Shown here piece after piece: positions 989 to 13,111 of a stretch of DNA of 42,453 nt; position 1 is the stretch's first letter, and every line of letters starts with the position of its first letter. The notes beneath the pieces are model-generated. The model was given only the letters and a program-made list of their open reading frames with translations. It was not told where the DNA came from and made no database searches. Origin of the DNA: Candidatus Coproplasma avistercoris. GTDB taxonomy: Bacteria; Bacillota; Clostridia; Christensenellales; Borkfalkiaceae. The stretch is from contig DVIK01000028.1 of assembly GCA_018711385.1 (NCBI GenBank), positions 1-42,453 of the forward strand, written 5' to 3'. Made by a program: the position numbers and the translations under genes.

Positions 989-1003
989 ATCAGCGCAAAA
1001 CAA

Positions 1004-1119
1004 GATATGCCGCAGACAGCAGGTGCGCTTGCGCTCAATATCCTGCCGAGGTGTTAAGGAATAAAGATCATAAAGCTGTTCTTACGTTGTCCTTATGCCG
1101 CGCGGCATAAGGGCTTTTT
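1004..1119 (+). ncRNA. Ribosomal protein L10 leader with attenuator
   Basis: The transcript between the promoter and rplJ carries the conserved L10-leader segments (GCCGCAGACAGCAGGTG and CCTGCCGAGGTGTTAAGGA), which in Firmicutes fold into the mRNA site bound by the L10(L12) complex. It ends in an intrinsic terminator (1091-1119), consistent with attenuation: bound L10 would favour termination before rplJ. This matches the known family (Rfam L10_leader); the exact fold was not computed. Confidence 0.85.
1091..1119 (+). terminator. Attenuator of the L10 leader
   Basis: Perfect 9-bp stem CCTTATGCC/GGCATAAGG with a GCGC loop, followed by GGGC-TTTTT. It sits between the leader and the rplJ ribosome binding site, so it acts before the genes. 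Confidence 0.85.
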
Positions 1120-1142
1120 AATTCTTAAAGGAGGTACACGGT

Positions 1143-6794: not shown

Positions 6795-7214
6795 ATGAAA
6801 AAGTTTATCGCAGCGCTCTGTGCCGCGCTCGTCGCGGCGGTCATCTCCGTAACGCTCGCCGCGTGCGGCGGCGGAGGCGTGGCGGGCACCTATAAGCTGG
6901 CGTCAATGTCCATGGCGCTCAGTCCCGGCGAAGACCCCGTCGTTCTGGAAGTGGGCGACGAATACATGGGGGAGATCCTCTCCGAAGATTTCTATACCCT
7001 GGAGCTTAAAGACGACAACACCTTTACAATGCATATAAACGTCGGCTCGGGCGAAACGTCATTCAGCCATGAGCAGGACGGCACGTGGGAGCTTGACGGG
7101 AACAAGCTCAGCCTGACCGCCGAGGGCGAAACCGTCGAGGGTACCCTGGAAGACGGGACCATCACCATGACGATGGGCGGCGAGGGTGCGCCCACTATAG
7201 TCATGAAAAAGTAA
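6795..7214 (+). CDS. Lipoprotein, single lipocalin-like domain
   Basis: 139-aa lipoprotein with signal MKKFIAALCAALVAAVISVTL and lipobox LAAC near residue 24. The mature domain reads GTYKLASM...VGDEYMGEILSEDFYTLELKDDNTFTMHINVG...DGTWELDGNKLSLTAEGETVEGTLEDGTITMTM, the classic repetitive beta pattern of small lipocalin-like lipoproteins common in gut Clostridia. GGAGGG lies before the ATG. It has its own promoter and terminator. It is about the size of one domain of the following protein, so it may represent the ancestral single-domain form. Function unknown; extracellular ligand binding is a guess. Confidence 0.8.
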   Translation: MKKFIAALCAALVAAVISVTLAACGGGGVAGTYKLASMSMALSPGEDPVVLEVGDEYMGEILSEDFYTLELKDDNTFTMHINVGSGETSFSHEQDGTWELDGNKLSLTAEGETVEGTLEDGTITMTMGGEGAPTIVMKK

Positions 7215-7224
7215 CAGTTATCGC

Positions 7225-7260
7225 GGCTGCGCGCGGTTTTCCGCGCGCAGCCTGTTTTTT
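7225..7260 (+). terminator. Terminator after second lipoprotein
   Basis: GGCTGCGCGCGG/CCGCGCGCAGCC perfect stem with TTTT loop, followed by TGTTTTTT. Confidence 0.9.
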
Positions 7261-7315
7261 AGCGGCGCGGCCCGCCGCGGCCGTCGCGTTTATCTTAAAA
7301 TAAGGAGGAGAAATC

Positions 7316-9082
7316 ATGAAGAAGTTTATCTTGGCGGCATTTGCCTGCACGGCAGTTGCGGGCGCGTGCGTGCTGGGCGCCTGCGGAGACATGTCCGGAG
7401 GGGCCGATGAGGTCGCGGGGAGGAAGTACAGGCTCACCGACTACGAGCTGACGTACGAAGGCGACTTTATCGAGAGCTTGCTGGACGGCATCGACATCGA
7501 CTCCATTTTGCGGCCGGCGCTCGAGCAGGGCGCGTGGTATGCCTTCGGCGAGGACGGTTATCTGTATTCGATAGGCGGCACCGCCGTTCCCGATGCGGCG
7601 CTGCCCGTTGCGGAACAGATCGCGGGAGAGCGCGAAACGGCGTATAAGTATTACAGGTACGAACAGAACGGCAAGGATATAACCTTCGACGTGCCGCAAA
7701 TGAGTGAAATTTACGGCGTCGGAATGCAGATCGATTTTACCGCAGAGATAGACGGCGGCATATTGAGCTGCAACTATGACGCAGCCATCACCTTTCCCGA
7801 CGACTACATAGGCACCGTGGCGCAGGATAAAGTGCAGACGTTTTCTATAAGCTGCGAGGGTGAGGACGACGGAGCGTTCGACCCCGCCGACTACGATATC
7901 GAGGATATGGGTTACGACGATACGGGCGAAGATGACGCCGGGATCACGGGCATATATGTGCTGGACTATCTCGAAACAGGCGGGGTGCGCTACGGGATCG
8001 GCGACGAGTACGTGCAGGGCGGTCAGTCGGTCACGCTCACCGAGGAGATGTTCACGCTGGCCCTCGCAGAGGACGGCACCCTGCGCGGCTCCGGATACGG
8101 CACTCCGTTCAGCGGCACGTGGAGCATGGACGGCGACGGCATAGTGATAGTTTCGGAAAGCACTCTGAGCGGCACGTTCGGCGACGGCGGCACGCTCGTC
8201 CTGGTGTCGGGGTCGACTACCATAGGCCTCGTAAAGACGGACATGAGCGAACTGCCCGACTACGCGCCCCCTGCGGAGCAGTTCGAAGGGACGTATTACT
8301 TTGTGTCCATCACCACTATGGACGGCAACACGGTGGAGATGGGCGACGAGATAAACGGCATGCCCGTCACCGACGAATACTATGTGCTGCAAATCAACGC
8401 CGACGGCACGTTTGACTTTACGTACAACCCCCTCGACGGTTCGGACGGCATGCCCATGGAGGGCACGTGGGAGGTAACCGACGGCACCATCGACATGACT
8501 GCCGAACTCGGCACCATGTCGGGGCAGCTCTCGGGCTCCGCGCTCACGCTCACCGCAAACGACGGGACGGTGCTCGAATTCACCCGGAACAGGGGCGGAT
8601 CGCCCGAACCCGATGACCCCGGCGGCGAAGCGCACGACCGGTGGGCGCAGCTGTTTTTCTTCCGCTCCATGACCGTGTCTGACGGGAACGGCGGGGAGAA
8701 CACATACCGCGTCGGCGACGAGCCGACGCCCGGCTACGTTATCGACGAGTTCCTCTTTGTACTGCGCATAACTGAGGACGGCGGGTTTGAACTTACGCTC
8801 GCGTCTGCGGACGGCAATGATACCGCCGTCAGCGGCACCTGGGAATACGACGGCGACGGCATACTGCTGCTCACGGACGACGGACAGGAGATCGGCGCCG
8901 TCATAGATGGCGACCCGAAGACCGGCGGCACGGTCACGCTCACGATCGGCAGCATCACCGTTATTTTAAGTTCGGACGATCCGGAGATGGCCGAGGCTGC
9001 CGGCAGGTACGAGCTGTATTCCGTAACGTATAACGGCATCACCTATCAGGCGACCTGTTCGATCAGGACGGTCAGTCCATAA
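7316..9082 (+). CDS. Multi-domain lipoprotein with repeated lipocalin-like units, C-terminally frameshifted
   Basis: 588-aa lipoprotein (signal MKKFILAAFACTAVAGACV, lipobox LGAC near residue 23; AAGGAGG-type site before ATG 7316). After a divergent N-terminal domain (about 38-205) come tandem beta domains of roughly 95-115 aa starting near residues 212 (GIYVLDYLETGG), 325 (GTYYFVSITTMDG) and 445 (LFFFRSMTVSDG), each with a TEExFTLxL..DGT and GTW signature. A further copy starts at 563 (GRYELYSVTYNG) but the frame breaks near 9050 and the protein ends in the unrelated tail CSIRTVSP. The rest of that domain survives in another frame (next entry). Likely a surface protein that grew by domain duplication and recently lost its last unit. 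Confidence 0.8.
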   Translation: MKKFILAAFACTAVAGACVLGACGDMSGGADEVAGRKYRLTDYELTYEGDFIESLLDGIDIDSILRPALEQGAWYAFGEDGYLYSIGGTAVPDAALPVAEQIAGERETAYKYYRYEQNGKDITFDVPQMSEIYGVGMQIDFTAEIDGGILSCNYDAAITFPDDYIGTVAQDKVQTFSISCEGEDDGAFDPADYDIEDMGYDDTGEDDAGITGIYVLDYLETGGVRYGIGDEYVQGGQSVTLTEEMFTLALAEDGTLRGSGYGTPFSGTWSMDGDGIVIVSESTLSGTFGDGGTLVLVSGSTTIGLVKTDMSELPDYAPPAEQFEGTYYFVSITTMDGNTVEMGDEINGMPVTDEYYVLQINADGTFDFTYNPLDGSDGMPMEGTWEVTDGTIDMTAELGTMSGQLSGSALTLTANDGTVLEFTRNRGGSPEPDDPGGEAHDRWAQLFFFRSMTVSDGNGGENTYRVGDEPTPGYVIDEFLFVLRITEDGGFELTLASADGNDTAVSGTWEYDGDGILLLTDDGQEIGAVIDGDPKTGGTVTLTIGSITVILSSDDPEMAEAAGRYELYSVTYNGITYQATCSIRTVSP

Positions 9083-9291
9083 TCGTCACCGAGGAGACGT
9101 TTTGGGTCGTGCTCGCAGAGGACGGCACAATGCACGGCATCAATAACAACTTGCCTTTTTAGGGCGAACGGACTCTCGATGAGGACGGCAGGACAGAACT
9201 GTACTGCGATCGGGTCACCGTTGCCGGCATATACCTCGGCGATGAACTCATGCTCGGCACCGATCCCGGGATGGTGCCGGTGCGGGCATAG
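9052..9291 (+). pseudogene. Out-of-frame remnant of the last lipoprotein domain
   Basis: Read in the frame starting at 9052, the sequence gives DLFDQDGQSIIVTEETFWVVLAEDGTMHG, which aligns with an intact copy inside the upstream gene (DEYVQGGQSVTLTEEMFTLALAEDGTLRG). A TAG at 9160-9162 falls exactly where the intact copy has Ser in PFSGTW (a one-base TCG to TAG change would explain it). The frame then continues to TAG 9289-9291. So this domain has both a frameshift (net loss of one or four bases near 9050) and a stop. It is the decayed tail of the 7316 gene, not a separate gene. Confidence 0.8.
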
Positions 9292-9321: not shown

Positions 9322-9348
9322 CGCCGCCCGCCGGCTGTGCGGGCGGCG
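9322..9348. other. GC-rich hairpin between lipoprotein remnant and TPR gene
   Basis: CGCCGCCCGC pairs with GCGGGCGGCG around a seven-base loop. No T-tract follows, so it may be a weak or factor-assisted terminator for the lipoprotein transcript. Confidence 0.4.
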
Positions 9349-9360
9349 CGCGGTTATACC

Positions 9361-9370
9361 GCATATATGC
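9361..9370. repeat. Intergenic palindrome GCATATATGC, copy 2
   Basis: Exact copy of the 10-mer at 60-69, here 55 bp upstream of the TPR-protein start codon. It could be part of that gene's control region. Confidence 0.6.
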
Positions 9371-9424
9371 CGCGGCCAAAGCGGCGCGCAATGTCCGTGC
9401 TGCCGTGTTTTCAGGAAAAAATAC

Positions 9425-12148
9425 ATGAAAGATACGATAAAAGTGTTCATCGCCTCGTCGATAGTGGAATTTGCCGACGTGCGCGACGACATAGAAAATT
9501 TTCTGTGGAGGCTGCGCGCGGAGCGCGGCCTGGACGTGGCGCCCGTGAGGTGCGAAACGGCAGACCCGTCGATGAGCGTCACCCGCAAGGAGGACGACTA
9601 CTGCGGCCTGATAAGGGACAGCGACATCTGCCTGTTCCTGTTCGATAAAAAGCTGGGCGCCTATTCGCTGGAAGAGTACGAATTTGCAAGGCGCCTCAAC
9701 GGCGAGGGCGCAGGTCCCGAGGTGATGCTGTTCTTCCGCGGCGACGCGCTGTCCGGTTTCCGCAGCCGTGCCGAAGAGGAGGGGTGCGCCGTATACGGCT
9801 TTAGCGACGCCCGCGACGTGTGCGCGCTGCTCGGGGAAAAGCTGAAAAAGGAGGCGGGCTCCTGCCCGCAGTCGGCCGTACGCGCGCCCGTCAACATCTT
9901 TCTCGCCTCGTCGATAAAGGACGACGAACGGCGGCGGATAAAGATAGAGAACTTCATCTGGAAGATGAACTTCGAGTTCGTAAGCGCATACGGCCTCTCC
10001 GTGCGCCCCCTCGTGCCCGGCGCGGACGGCGGCCTCGGCGAGATAATAGGCAGCAGCCGGATGTGCTTCTTCATTGTGTTCACGCGCGTCGGCGACGAGG
10101 CGCGCAGAGAGCTGGAGTTTGCAAAAAAATATTTCGACCGCACCGGCTATCCCAAGATATATGTCTATTTCAACGCCGTCCCGGACGGCAGGAGCGAAGA
10201 GCGGTCTGTCGCCGAATTCAAGGATTATCTCGACAGGGAGCTCAAGCATTTTTACGGCACGTTCGACGGCATCGACACGATAAAGCTGCGCATACTGCTC
10301 AACCTCGCCATACAGGAGACCGGCTCCAAGGCGGTGTCTTTCAAAGACGGCAAGTGTTTTTTCGGCGGCGACGCGCTCTTTTCCGTGGACAACGTTTCGG
10401 AGTTTGCCAACAACAAAAAACTCGCCGAGCTCAAGGCGCAGTTTCCCGCCGTCTCCGAAGAATACCACGTCTGCAGGCGCGAATACGAAAGGGACCGCGC
10501 CGACAGCGCGCTGTGCGAAAGGTTCTACGAGGCGGGCACAAGATATAACAGCCTCAAAAAGCAGATAGAGGACCTGGAAGACAAGATATTCGGCGTGGCG
10601 CTCTCCATGAGCAGGGACGAAGTGGGCGGGCATATAACCGAACGGCAGAAGCGCGCCTACAGGTATTTCGAGGCGGGCGACGTGGAAAACGCCGTGGCGA
10701 TACTCGACGTGGACGAGGCGCTGGAAGAATACCGCCGCGCCGAAAAATATGCCGCTGCCAAGGCGGCGGAGGTCATCGCCGAAGGCAGGCTGAAAATAGG
10801 CTTTCTGAGGACTATGTTCAGATACAGGGAAAGATTCGGCATCATGGAACAGACCTACGAAAAGCTGTTGCCCGTGGCGGCCGCGCAGCAGATATGCCTG
10901 GACATATATAACGATTACGCCCTCTTCCTTGCGGAAAGGGACAGGCACCGCGAGGCGCTTGAAAAGGCGCTCATGCTCAAAACGTTATATACCGTATTTC
11001 CCGCAGCGGGCGATGCCGCGGGGCGGGCGGACAACCTCACCGTGCTCGCCGCCGTCAGCGCAAAGATGTCCGATATGCAGAGGCAGACCGAGGAATATTC
11101 CCTGCAATCGCTCGCGCTGCGCGAAGAGATATATTCGAAGGCCCCCTCGGACGAGTCCAACAACGCGGGCATGGCAAGTTCGTGCATGATACTCGGCGAA
11201 ATATGCCGCAAGGCCCAGCGCACGGAGGAGGCGGCGGAATACCTCGAACGTGCGGACGGGATATTCGCAGGGCTGGAAGCGTCTTCCGACAGGTACATAA
11301 CCGAACACGCCCGCGCGCTCATCTTCATGGGGCAGATCAGTTACGACAGGTATATGGCCGGGGAGGCGCTCGCCTGCTACCGCAGGGCGGAGGAGCTTCT
11401 GCGCAGGCTGCCTTTGAACGATCCCGCGGAGAAGTACCTGCTTTCATCATGCTGGCAGAACGGCGCGTCCATCTGTAAAAAGATCGGCAGGCGGGACGAG
11501 GCGTTGCGGCTGTTCGCCCGGTCGCGCGACGTGCGCGAGGAACTGGCGGACGAGGATCCGGCAGGCTATATGCCCGCTCTCGCCTATGCCTGTCAGGGGA
11601 TGGGCAACCTGCTGCGCGCGATGGGGAAGTATGGAGAGGCGCTGGATAATTTCATCCGCGCATACAGCATGCGCAAAGCCATGTGCGCCCGCAATAACGG
11701 CGCGCACGAGGTGGAACTCTCCGATTCGTGCGTAAAGCTCGCCGGTACTTATCTCGACGAGGGCAGGGCGGACGAGGCTTTCAGGTATATCTCTGAGGCC
11801 GAGGCCATCCGCGGGCGGCTGAACGGCGTAAGCCCGCAGACCTACCGCAAGGGATACGCACAGGTACTGTTCGAGTACGGCAGATATTACGAGGCCGCGG
11901 GCGACGCGGCCGCAGCCGAAAGGTACTACGAGCGCGCGCTGGAGCTGCGCACGCAGGGCGACGTTGACGTTGCCGTGAATGCAGAGGCGCTGCACGACAG
12001 CTTCACCAAGATGAAGCAGCTCTGCGGCGAAAATTACGCCGAAAAGCTGGACCCCGCGGCGAGAAGAGTGCACGACGCGCTCTACGGCTACAACCGTTCC
12101 CGCCCCGAGGGCGGGCGCATAGTCCTTGAAACGTCCTACCGCGTATGA
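9425..12148 (+). CDS. Large signalling-type protein: two TIR-like/DUF4062-like domains plus TPR array
   Basis: 907-aa soluble protein. ATG 9425 is preferred over the track start because CAGGA lies eight bases upstream. Domain 1 (about 1-140) has VFIASSIVEFADVRDDIENFLWRL ... DYCGLIRDSDICLFLFDKKLGAYSLEEYEFARRL; domain 2 (about 155-310) repeats the plan: NIFLASSIKDDERRRIKIENFIWKM ... GSSRMCFFIVFTRVGDEARRELEFAKKYF. Both look like DUF4062-type Rossmann-like modules related to TIR/nucleoside-processing folds, each with a Glu in the (L)E(Y/L)EFA helix. A charged helical linker follows, then from about 490 to 870 a series of TPR-like repeats (EEAAEYLERADGIF, EALACYRRAEELL, DEALRLFARSRDV, GEALDNFIRAYSM, AAERYYERALEL). 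It stands alone between decayed lipoprotein sequence and rpsB, which suggests an acquired accessory gene. A role in stress sensing or phage defence is inference; no catalytic activity is shown. Confidence 0.65.
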   Translation: MKDTIKVFIASSIVEFADVRDDIENFLWRLRAERGLDVAPVRCETADPSMSVTRKEDDYCGLIRDSDICLFLFDKKLGAYSLEEYEFARRLNGEGAGPEVMLFFRGDALSGFRSRAEEEGCAVYGFSDARDVCALLGEKLKKEAGSCPQSAVRAPVNIFLASSIKDDERRRIKIENFIWKMNFEFVSAYGLSVRPLVPGADGGLGEIIGSSRMCFFIVFTRVGDEARRELEFAKKYFDRTGYPKIYVYFNAVPDGRSEERSVAEFKDYLDRELKHFYGTFDGIDTIKLRILLNLAIQETGSKAVSFKDGKCFFGGDALFSVDNVSEFANNKKLAELKAQFPAVSEEYHVCRREYERDRADSALCERFYEAGTRYNSLKKQIEDLEDKIFGVALSMSRDEVGGHITERQKRAYRYFEAGDVENAVAILDVDEALEEYRRAEKYAAAKAAEVIAEGRLKIGFLRTMFRYRERFGIMEQTYEKLLPVAAAQQICLDIYNDYALFLAERDRHREALEKALMLKTLYTVFPAAGDAAGRADNLTVLAAVSAKMSDMQRQTEEYSLQSLALREEIYSKAPSDESNNAGMASSCMILGEICRKAQRTEEAAEYLERADGIFAGLEASSDRYITEHARALIFMGQISYDRYMAGEALACYRRAEELLRRLPLNDPAEKYLLSSCWQNGASICKKIGRRDEALRLFARSRDVREELADEDPAGYMPALAYACQGMGNLLRAMGKYGEALDNFIRAYSMRKAMCARNNGAHEVELSDSCVKLAGTYLDEGRADEAFRYISEAEAIRGRLNGVSPQTYRKGYAQVLFEYGRYYEAAGDAAAAERYYERALELRTQGDVDVAVNAEALHDSFTKMKQLCGENYAEKLDPAARRVHDALYGYNRSRPEGGRIVLETSYRV

Positions 12149-12198: not shown

Positions 12199-12227
12199 TT
12201 TACAACGGCGAGTTTTTCTGCTAAAAT
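12199..12227 (+). promoter_or_regulatory. Promoter for rpsB-tsf
   Basis: TTTACA (12199-12204), 17-bp spacer, TAAAAT (12222-12227). The start site would be near 12234, giving a leader of about 113 nt. Confidence 0.8.
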
Positions 12228-12233
12228 ATCAAC

Positions 12234-12311
12234 GCTGTAAAAATTCACACCCGCGGGGCACGCGCTCCGTGGCGGCAAAATCTTTCAGTGCCGCCGTAAG
12301 CGCCTTACAGC
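12234..12311 (+). promoter_or_regulatory. Structured rpsB leader (three-way junction)
   Basis: The extreme 5' end of the transcript, GCTGTAA (12234-12240), is exactly complementary to TTACAGC (12305-12311). Enclosed are two more stems: GGGGC/GCTCC (12255-12268) and GGCGGCA/TGCCGCC (12271-12295). Together they form a compact three-way junction ending about 23 bases before the rpsB ribosome binding site. Autoregulation of rpsB by S2 is known in enterobacteria; a similar role here is inference. Confidence 0.55.
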
Positions 12312-12346
12312 TGCGCCTGCGGGGAGGTAAAACGGAGGAATTAAAT

Positions 12347-13111
12347 ATGGCAGTTATAACCATGAAGCAGCTGCTCGAAGCCGGCGTTCATTTCGGCCAC
12401 CAGACCAGAAAGTGGAACCCCAAGATGAGCCGCTACATCTACGCAGCGCGCAACGACATTCACATCATCGACCTTCAGCTCACCGTGAACCTTATCGAAA
12501 AGGCTTACAACTATGTTGCGGAGAGCGTAAAGGAGGGCAAGACGGTGCTCTTCGTCGGCACCAAGAAGCAGGCTCAGGAGGCCATCAGGGAAGAGGCCGA
12601 GCGCTGCGGACAGTTCTATGTGAACTCCCGCTGGCTGGGCGGCACGCTCACCAATTTCAAGACCATACGTTCGCGCATCGACCGCATGGTAAAACTTGAA
12701 AAGATGGAGGAAAACGGCGAATTCGACCTTCTGCCCAAGAAGGAAGTGGCAAAGCTCAAGGAAGAGATGGGCAAGCTGCAGACCAACCTCAACGGCATAC
12801 GCAACATGAACAAGCTGCCCGGCATAATGTTCGTCGTGGATCCTCACAACGAGGACATCGCCGTTGCCGAGGCGCGCAAGCTCAACATCCCCATCGTTGC
12901 CATAACCGACACCAACTGCGATCCCGACCTCATCGACTATGTTATCCCCGGCAACGACGACGCGATAAGGGCAATCAAGCTCATATCCTCGGTAATAGCC
13001 AACGCCGTCATCGAGGCAAACCAGGGCGAGACCGCCGAAATTGCCGCCGAAGAGGGTGCAGAAGAAGTGCAGGCGCAGGAGGAAGCTCCCGCCGAAGAGC
13101 AGGCCGAGTAA
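12347..13111 (+). CDS. rpsB: Ribosomal protein S2
   Basis: S2 (uS2) is a late-binding 30S protein. The 254-aa product contains the family signatures ([103 protein letters not shown]) and an acidic C-terminal tail. ATG 12347 is chosen because of GGAGG at 12334-12338; the track extends upstream without support. It is followed by tsf after 35 bp, the standard pairing. The structured leader upstream probably controls it. Confidence 0.98.

What the first reader, a model, noticed from the sequence alone, without database searches (positions are those of the whole stretch)
9425..12148. Solitary protein with two TIR-like/DUF4062-type domains and a TPR array
A 907-aa protein with duplicated Rossmann-like N-terminal modules and a long TPR tail lies between a decayed lipoprotein gene and rpsB, where such a gene is not expected. 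Similar effector-plus-repeat layouts occur in bacterial defence and death-signalling proteins. The second domain lacks the CGLIRDSD run of the first, so one may be catalytic and one regulatory.
Basis: partly seen in the sequence, partly recalled or inferred. Interest (0 to 1): 0.7.

Follow-up and report, generated by a model that had tools for sequence, protein, structure and literature searches.

The report
Two-headed TIR-like NADase sensor protein
A gut bacterium carries an optional gene for a self-contained "alarm" protein whose front end has one apparently working NAD-destroying enzyme domain and one disabled copy of it, joined to a long repeat arm that probably senses a threat; the disabled copy has arisen more than once in relatives, which suggests it has a job of its own.

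Summary
Window 9425-12148 (+) encodes a 907-aa protein with two TIR-like DUF4062-type heads (D1 4-143, D2 155-272), a bridge and helical stalk, and about 290 aa of TPRs. It is accessory cargo between ruvX-DUF1292 and rpsB; that interval is empty in G045 and G003. The tandem form occurs in 3 of 93 species of the genus, and the wider family in about 5% of the order.

A 2026 preprint (PMC13174449) showed DUF4062 to be a TIR-like NADase, with bacterial members (Swarozyc) defending against phage. D1 aligns with canonical DUF4062 and keeps the pocket, including the catalytic-Glu equivalent E84. D2 has lost the BB-loop/alpha-B segment but keeps a Glu (E229) and the bridge to the stalk.

Active head plus degenerate head recurs in three other lineages, either fused or as two neighbouring genes. 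In three of the four lineages the heads divided conserved features cleanly: pocket in one, bridge in the other. D2 evolves more slowly than D1.

Best reading: a solitary TPR-sensor/NADase-effector with a pseudo-enzyme adaptor head, a new variant of the Swarozyc-type kind. NADase activity, trigger and defence role are inferred. Flanking genes show no defence enrichment over a random control.

The parts
9425..12148 (+). Two-headed DUF4062-TPR protein, 907 aa (P0001)
9413..9416 (+). AGGA ribosome-binding-site-like motif, 8 nt before the ATG
   Evidence: sequence
9434..9853 (+). D1: intact TIR-like/DUF4062-type head (residues 4-143)
9551..9601 (+). D1 BB-loop/alpha-B pocket segment (residues 43-59, CETADPSMSVTRKEDDY), invariant in all but one residue of the three tandem proteins; absent from D2
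9674..9676 (+). E84 codon: catalytic-Glu equivalent of D1
   Evidence: aligned with the invariant Glu of canonical DUF4062 proteins
9887..10240 (+). D2: degenerate TIR-like head (residues 155-272), BB-loop segment deleted
10109..10111 (+). E229 codon: Glu retained in D2 at the catalytic position
10241..10429 (+). Bridge (residues 273-335, HFYGTFDGIDTIKLR...), the most conserved part (90% identity)
10430..11104 (+). Helical stalk (residues 336-560)
11105..11968 (+). TPR array, kinesin-light-chain/nephrocystin type (residues 561-848), fastest-evolving part
7316..9082 (+). Neighbouring lipocalin-like lipoprotein gene, decayed at its 3' end; part of the same variable interval
12199..12227 (+). rpsB promoter-like site (TTTACA-17-TAAAAT, extended -10), downstream of the cargo
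   Evidence: the -10 region is also seen upstream of rpsB in G045

Best explanation
A solitary sensor-effector protein that works like Swarozyc-type DUF4062 NADases. The TPR arm recognises a trigger, most likely a phage component (inferred). Binding is passed through the helical stalk and bridge to the heads (inferred). D1 is the enzyme: a TIR-like N-glycosidase that hydrolyses NAD+ using E84, halting the cell's growth so that infection fails (inferred from the family). D2 is a pseudo-enzyme adaptor: it has lost the BB-loop side of the pocket, keeps the conserved bridge to the stalk, and anchors D1 and probably regulates it. The split of features between D1 and D2 is shown by sequence; the biochemistry and the defence role are not.
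For: DUF4062 has been shown to be a TIR-like NADase used in phage defence and acting through one Glu (PMC13174449). D1 matches canonical DUF4062 and keeps all ten pocket columns in all three tandem proteins, allowing E for Q at position 56. D2 keeps 16 of 30 pocket cells but 21 of 21 bridge cells, and D1 1 of 21 bridge cells; single-head relatives keep both sets (212/220 and 148/154). The same pairing occurs in four lineages, in two of them with the heads as separate neighbouring genes in at least one genome. The degenerate heads are not one clade (p-AU 0.001), so degeneration happened at least twice. D2 is under stronger constraint than D1 (dN 0.13-0.16 versus 0.23-0.26) and the TPRs are the most variable part (0.34-0.51), as expected of a sensor. 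Distribution is patchy: 8/93 in the genus, 19/301 in the family, 20/396 in the order. The closest single-domain match of the model among solved structures is an NDT-family N-glycosidase (4jen, TM 0.75 by target length).
Against: D1 falls below the Pfam DUF4062 cut-off. The pocket motif KQ is KE in the tandem group, which may change substrate or activity. Of four human DUF4062 proteins tested in the preprint only TEP1 was active, so the domain alone does not prove catalysis. Neighbours are not enriched for defence genes over a random control, and the gene was not found in phages or viral contigs. Models are of moderate confidence (pLDDT about 64; D2 about 55-60). In G345 the bridge columns are not split between the heads.
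Confidence: 0.5

Rival explanations
1. D1 is a nucleotide N-glycosidase acting on free nucleotides (CMP or deoxynucleotides) rather than on NAD+, so the protein empties a nucleotide pool instead of NAD.
For: The best single-domain solved-structure match is the CMP N-glycosidase BcmB (4jen), and viral matches include nucleoside 2-deoxyribosyltransferases. TIR, NDT and DUF4062 are distant relatives (PMC13174449).
Against: Sequence ties D1 to DUF4062, whose two biochemically active members hydrolyse NAD+. Fold similarity alone cannot separate the two groups.
Confidence: 0.15
2. D1 makes a nucleotide second messenger (an ADP-ribose derivative) that a separate receptor reads, rather than killing by depletion.
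For: Many TIR systems signal this way (summarised in PMC13174449). In G044 the gene overlaps a NUDIX hydrolase gene, and in G017 a single-headed relative lies 14 bp downstream of a gene for an apparent membrane protein.
Against: No partner gene is shared between loci; the window copy has no candidate receptor beside it.
Confidence: 0.13
3. It is not a defence protein: a TPR scaffold or stress sensor with catalytically silent heads serving normal physiology, perhaps translation, since copies lie beside rpsB, lepA-hemW and bipA.
For: Neighbours are mostly housekeeping genes and the defence-gene control is negative. Three of four human DUF4062 proteins tested were inactive.
Against: Rare and patchy distribution and different sites in different genomes; an invariant pocket in D1; fast TPR evolution.
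Confidence: 0.2
4. D2 is not a regulator but a decaying remnant kept only as a spacer.
For: Most pocket residues are lost and a loop is deleted.
Against: D2 is more conserved than D1 (74-77% versus 68-70% identity; lower dN), and degenerate heads persist in several lineages.
Confidence: 0.1

Closest known systems
Swarozyc (bacterial DUF4062 NADase defence, e.g. KpSwz; PMC13174449)
   Same: TIR-like DUF4062-type head with a conserved Glu, helical stalk below the head, C-terminal sensor domain, solitary gene, patchy distribution.
   Different: Two heads, one degenerate; TPR array instead of the HTH/winged auxiliary domain; head below the Pfam cut-off; no activity or defence data. The preprint's main text mentions neither TPR nor tandem heads (its supplement could not be read).
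Animal NPHP3 (DUF4062-NACHT, nephrocystin)
   Same: DUF4062-type head joined to a helical/repeat C-terminus; the window's TPRs are of the kinesin-light-chain/nephrocystin type. NPHP3's own TPRs are from general knowledge.
   Different: No NACHT ATPase here; two heads; NPHP3 was inactive as an NADase in the preprint.
Tandem-TIR protein TirE of Dictyostelium (PMC13142454)
   Same: Two diverged TIR domains in tandem in one protein.
   Different: Eukaryotic, with RCC1 repeats; that paper does not mention DUF4062 or TPR.
Single-headed DUF4062-like TPR proteins of the same order (e.g. G352, G639, G182)
   Same: Homologous over D2, bridge, stalk and TPRs.
   Different: One head that carries both the intact pocket and the bridge; no second head.

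Membership tests
DUF4062 / Swarozyc-type TIR-like NADase | Sequence match to the DUF4062 model | tested here: inconclusive
   E 1.5e-4, 22.3 bits against a cut-off of 24.7; profile comparison of D1 with canonical DUF4062 E 2.5e-5, 75% probability
DUF4062 / Swarozyc-type TIR-like NADase | Conserved catalytic Glu after strand C | tested here: met
   E84 in D1, and E229 in D2, align with the invariant Glu of relatives and canonical proteins
DUF4062 / Swarozyc-type TIR-like NADase | TIR-like five-strand beta/alpha fold | tested here: met
   Predicted topology E-H-E-H-E-H-E-H-E-H for D1, pLDDT about 80 outside the BB loop; single-domain Foldseek match is an NDT-family enzyme, no TIR in the top 50
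DUF4062 / Swarozyc-type TIR-like NADase | NAD+ hydrolysis to ADP-ribose and nicotinamide | not testable with these tools
   needs a biochemical assay
Swarozyc antiphage system | HTH/winged auxiliary domain that binds the phage portal | tested here: not met
   C-terminus is stalk plus TPR
Swarozyc antiphage system | Protects against phage | not testable with these tools
   needs a phage assay
Antiphage defence gene by context | Located among defence genes | tested here: not met
   No enrichment over 95 random genes of the same genomes; window neighbours are ruvX, DUF1292, lipoproteins, rpsB
Accessory (non-core) gene | Present in few relatives, at different sites | tested here: met
   Tandem form in 3 of 93 genomes of the genus, any homologue in 8; empty ruvX-DUF1292-rpsB interval in G045 and G003

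The most novel reading that the evidence does not exclude
A recurrent two-head design in bacterial TIR-like immunity: a catalytic head paired, in cis or in trans, with a pseudo-TIR head that has lost the autoinhibitory BB-loop side but carries the link to the sensor, so that catalysis and signal transmission are divided between two copies. This would parallel kinase/pseudokinase pairs and arose at least twice by complementary loss.
Probability: 0.4. Interest if true: 0.68.

Novelty: new variant of a known kind. Interest (0 to 1): 0.5.

Why it matters
DUF4062 was recognised as a TIR-like NADase only in 2026. This family adds a different sensor (TPR) and natural evidence for how the heads work. 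The conserved features of a single head fall into two sets, a pocket and a bridge to the stalk, and two-headed relatives have divided them between copies more than once. That gives a direct way to test whether TIR-like NADases need a non-catalytic partner head and what the BB loop does.

Tried and rejected
Defence-island context: PADLOC hits among 160 neighbours (Fic, TIR, candidate PDC families) looked suggestive, but 95 random genes from the same genomes gave at least as many families, so it was dropped. Conserved partner gene: the upstream gene shared by six loci proved to be a core translation GTPase (lepA or bipA in the two members scanned), and the downstream pair ogt and hemW. Phage or plasmid carriage: none in phages or viral contigs; plasmid hits cover the TPR part, not the heads. 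Other effector heads on the same stalk: none seen; the one match outside the order, G835, has the same single head. Recent foreign DNA by composition: GC3 0.78 is like its neighbours. Foldseek with the two-head model is dominated by meaningless two-domain matches at rmsd 17-20; only single-domain matches were used. Attempts to enlarge the alignment for AlphaFold through viral contigs failed.

Full report
WHAT IS THERE. The ORF at 9425-12148 (+) is intact and encodes 907 aa, starting at an ATG with AGGA eight bases upstream. Pfam gives TPRs above cut-off and DUF4062 at residues 6-80 slightly below its cut-off; NCBIfam and PADLOC give nothing. A head HMM made from relatives, without any D2 of the window's type, finds two heads: D1 (E 1.1e-47) and D2 (E 1.3e-34). 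D1 and D2 profiles match each other with E 5.5e-12. AlphaFold on a three-member alignment gives D1 as five alternating strands and helices (pLDDT about 80, BB loop low), D2 as the same pattern at lower confidence, then bridge, stalk and a confident TPR superhelix. The single-domain solved-structure match is CMP N-glycosidase BcmB of the NDT family. That fits the statement of Osinski et al. (PMC13174449) that DUF4062 is related to TIR and NDT domains.

WHERE IT SITS. The genome is a 1.38-Mb, 85%-complete assembly in 84 contigs. The nearest named record, 67% identical, is Candidatus Coproplasma, Clostridia. In relatives the core order is ruvX, DUF1292, rpsB, tsf. In G045 and G003 nothing lies between DUF1292 and rpsB; G035 has one lipoprotein there; others have different genes. 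In the window this interval holds a small ORF, two lipocalin-like lipoprotein genes (the second decayed at its 3' end) and the two-headed gene. The rpsB promoter-like site lies downstream of the cargo. G003 carries its own two-headed gene elsewhere, and none of the window's neighbours recurs beside any homologue. The gene is accessory and has changed place, but its codon composition is like the host's.

DISTRIBUTION. Homologues occur in 8 of 93 genomes of the genus, 19 of 301 of the family and 20 of 396 of the order (15 of 142 genera); outside the order the stalk was found once in the class sample. Three of the 93 have the fused two-headed form like the window's: G000, G003, G044. Canonical DUF4062 proteins of about 300-360 aa, and larger ones, are separate genes in other genomes.

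THE TWO HEADS. In 22 single-headed relatives, 36 columns are conserved. They include a pocket set (SSI after strand A, C-E and D in strand B/BB loop, Q of KQ, G and T before helix C, and the Glu) and a bridge set (H-Y-Y and D-T-x-K-L leading into the stalk). Singles keep 212/220 and 148/154 of these cells. In the window's group D1 keeps 30/30 pocket and 1/21 bridge cells, D2 16/30 and 21/21. In G276/G277 the figures are 19/20 and 4/14 for D1, 2/20 and 13/14 for D2; in G599 9/10 and 0/7, 3/10 and 7/7; in G345 9/10 and 3/7, 4/10 and 3/7. The pocket columns were grouped by hand and E was accepted for Q at position 56, where the window's group has KE. Two genomes have the heads in separate genes: G277 has a 152-aa intact head 0.9 kb upstream of the degenerate-head protein, and G599 has a 154-aa intact head 32 bp downstream. 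Holding the degenerate heads together as one clade (G345 left out) is rejected (p-AU 0.001); holding the intact extra heads together is not (p-AU 0.51). These are short, fast domains with long branches, so this supports at least two independent losses without proving the number.

CONSTRAINT. Between the three two-headed proteins, identity is 68-70% in D1, 74-77% in D2, 90-92% in the bridge and 45-58% in the TPRs. dN is 0.23-0.26, 0.13-0.16, 0.06-0.10 and 0.34-0.51 (dS is near saturation). D2 is therefore not junk. The TPR part varies most, as in sensors under changing pressure.

HOW IT PROBABLY WORKS. From PMC13174449: DUF4062 heads hydrolyse NAD+ through a Glu; KpSwz is autoinhibited by BB loops pushed into the pockets; a phage portal bound by the C-terminal auxiliary domain releases it, with helical stalks proposed to transmit the signal. 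Applied here: the TPR arm senses, stalk and bridge transmit, D1 with E84 cuts NAD+, and D2 holds and regulates D1. A head without a BB loop cannot autoinhibit in the way described for KpSwz, so D2 may set how D1 is held off or assembled. Shown: two heads, division of conserved features, recurrence, constraint, accessory status. Inferred: NAD+ as substrate, trigger, defence, and the role of D2.

WHAT SPEAKS AGAINST A FIRM DEFENCE CALL. Neighbours of about 30 homologues carry some defence-like genes, but random genes of the same genomes carry as many by the same test. Single-headed copies lie between lepA and ogt-hemW, or next to bipA. No copy was found in phage or viral collections.

NOVELTY. 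The preprint's main text mentions neither TPR nor tandem heads, and literature searches found no bacterial tandem DUF4062. Its supplement, where domain architectures are drawn, could not be read, so the TPR architecture itself may already be catalogued there. Rated as a new variant of a known kind.

Noticed in passing
window 992-1129 (+): Ribosomal protein L10 leader (Rfam RF00557, 78.8 bits), the only Rfam match in the window.
   Followed up: no
window 12215-12345 and L141 about 12300-12470: The rpsB 5' leader is strikingly conserved between genomes (CTGTAAAAATTCACACCCGC...GCGCTCCGTGGCGGCAAA) yet matches no Rfam family; possibly an undescribed rpsB leader RNA.
   Followed up: no
L039:6613-9758 (G044): The two-headed gene of G044 overlaps the start of a NUDIX hydrolase gene (9345-9758) by a few bases, suggesting coupled translation.
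   Followed up: partly
L038:6029-7072 (G003): A Fic-domain gene lies next to the G003 copy, on the opposite strand.
   Followed up: no
L040:215-2440 (G017): A 741-aa apparent membrane protein with no Pfam match ends 14 bp before a single-headed DUF4062-like TPR gene.
   Followed up: no
L051, L049, L048: Single-headed relatives inserted beside lepA-like GTPase genes and directly before ogt and hemW in three genomes of one genus; in G104 and G120 they lie beside a bipA-like gene.
   Followed up: partly
window 6795-9082: Two lipocalin-like lipoprotein genes in the same variable interval; the longer one is a multi-repeat protein broken near 9060-9160 by a frame change and an internal stop.
   Followed up: partly
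L055:11456-14273 (G277) and L117:8736-11958 (G599): Small stand-alone intact TIR-like head genes beside a degenerate-head TPR gene: possible two-component forms.
   Followed up: yes
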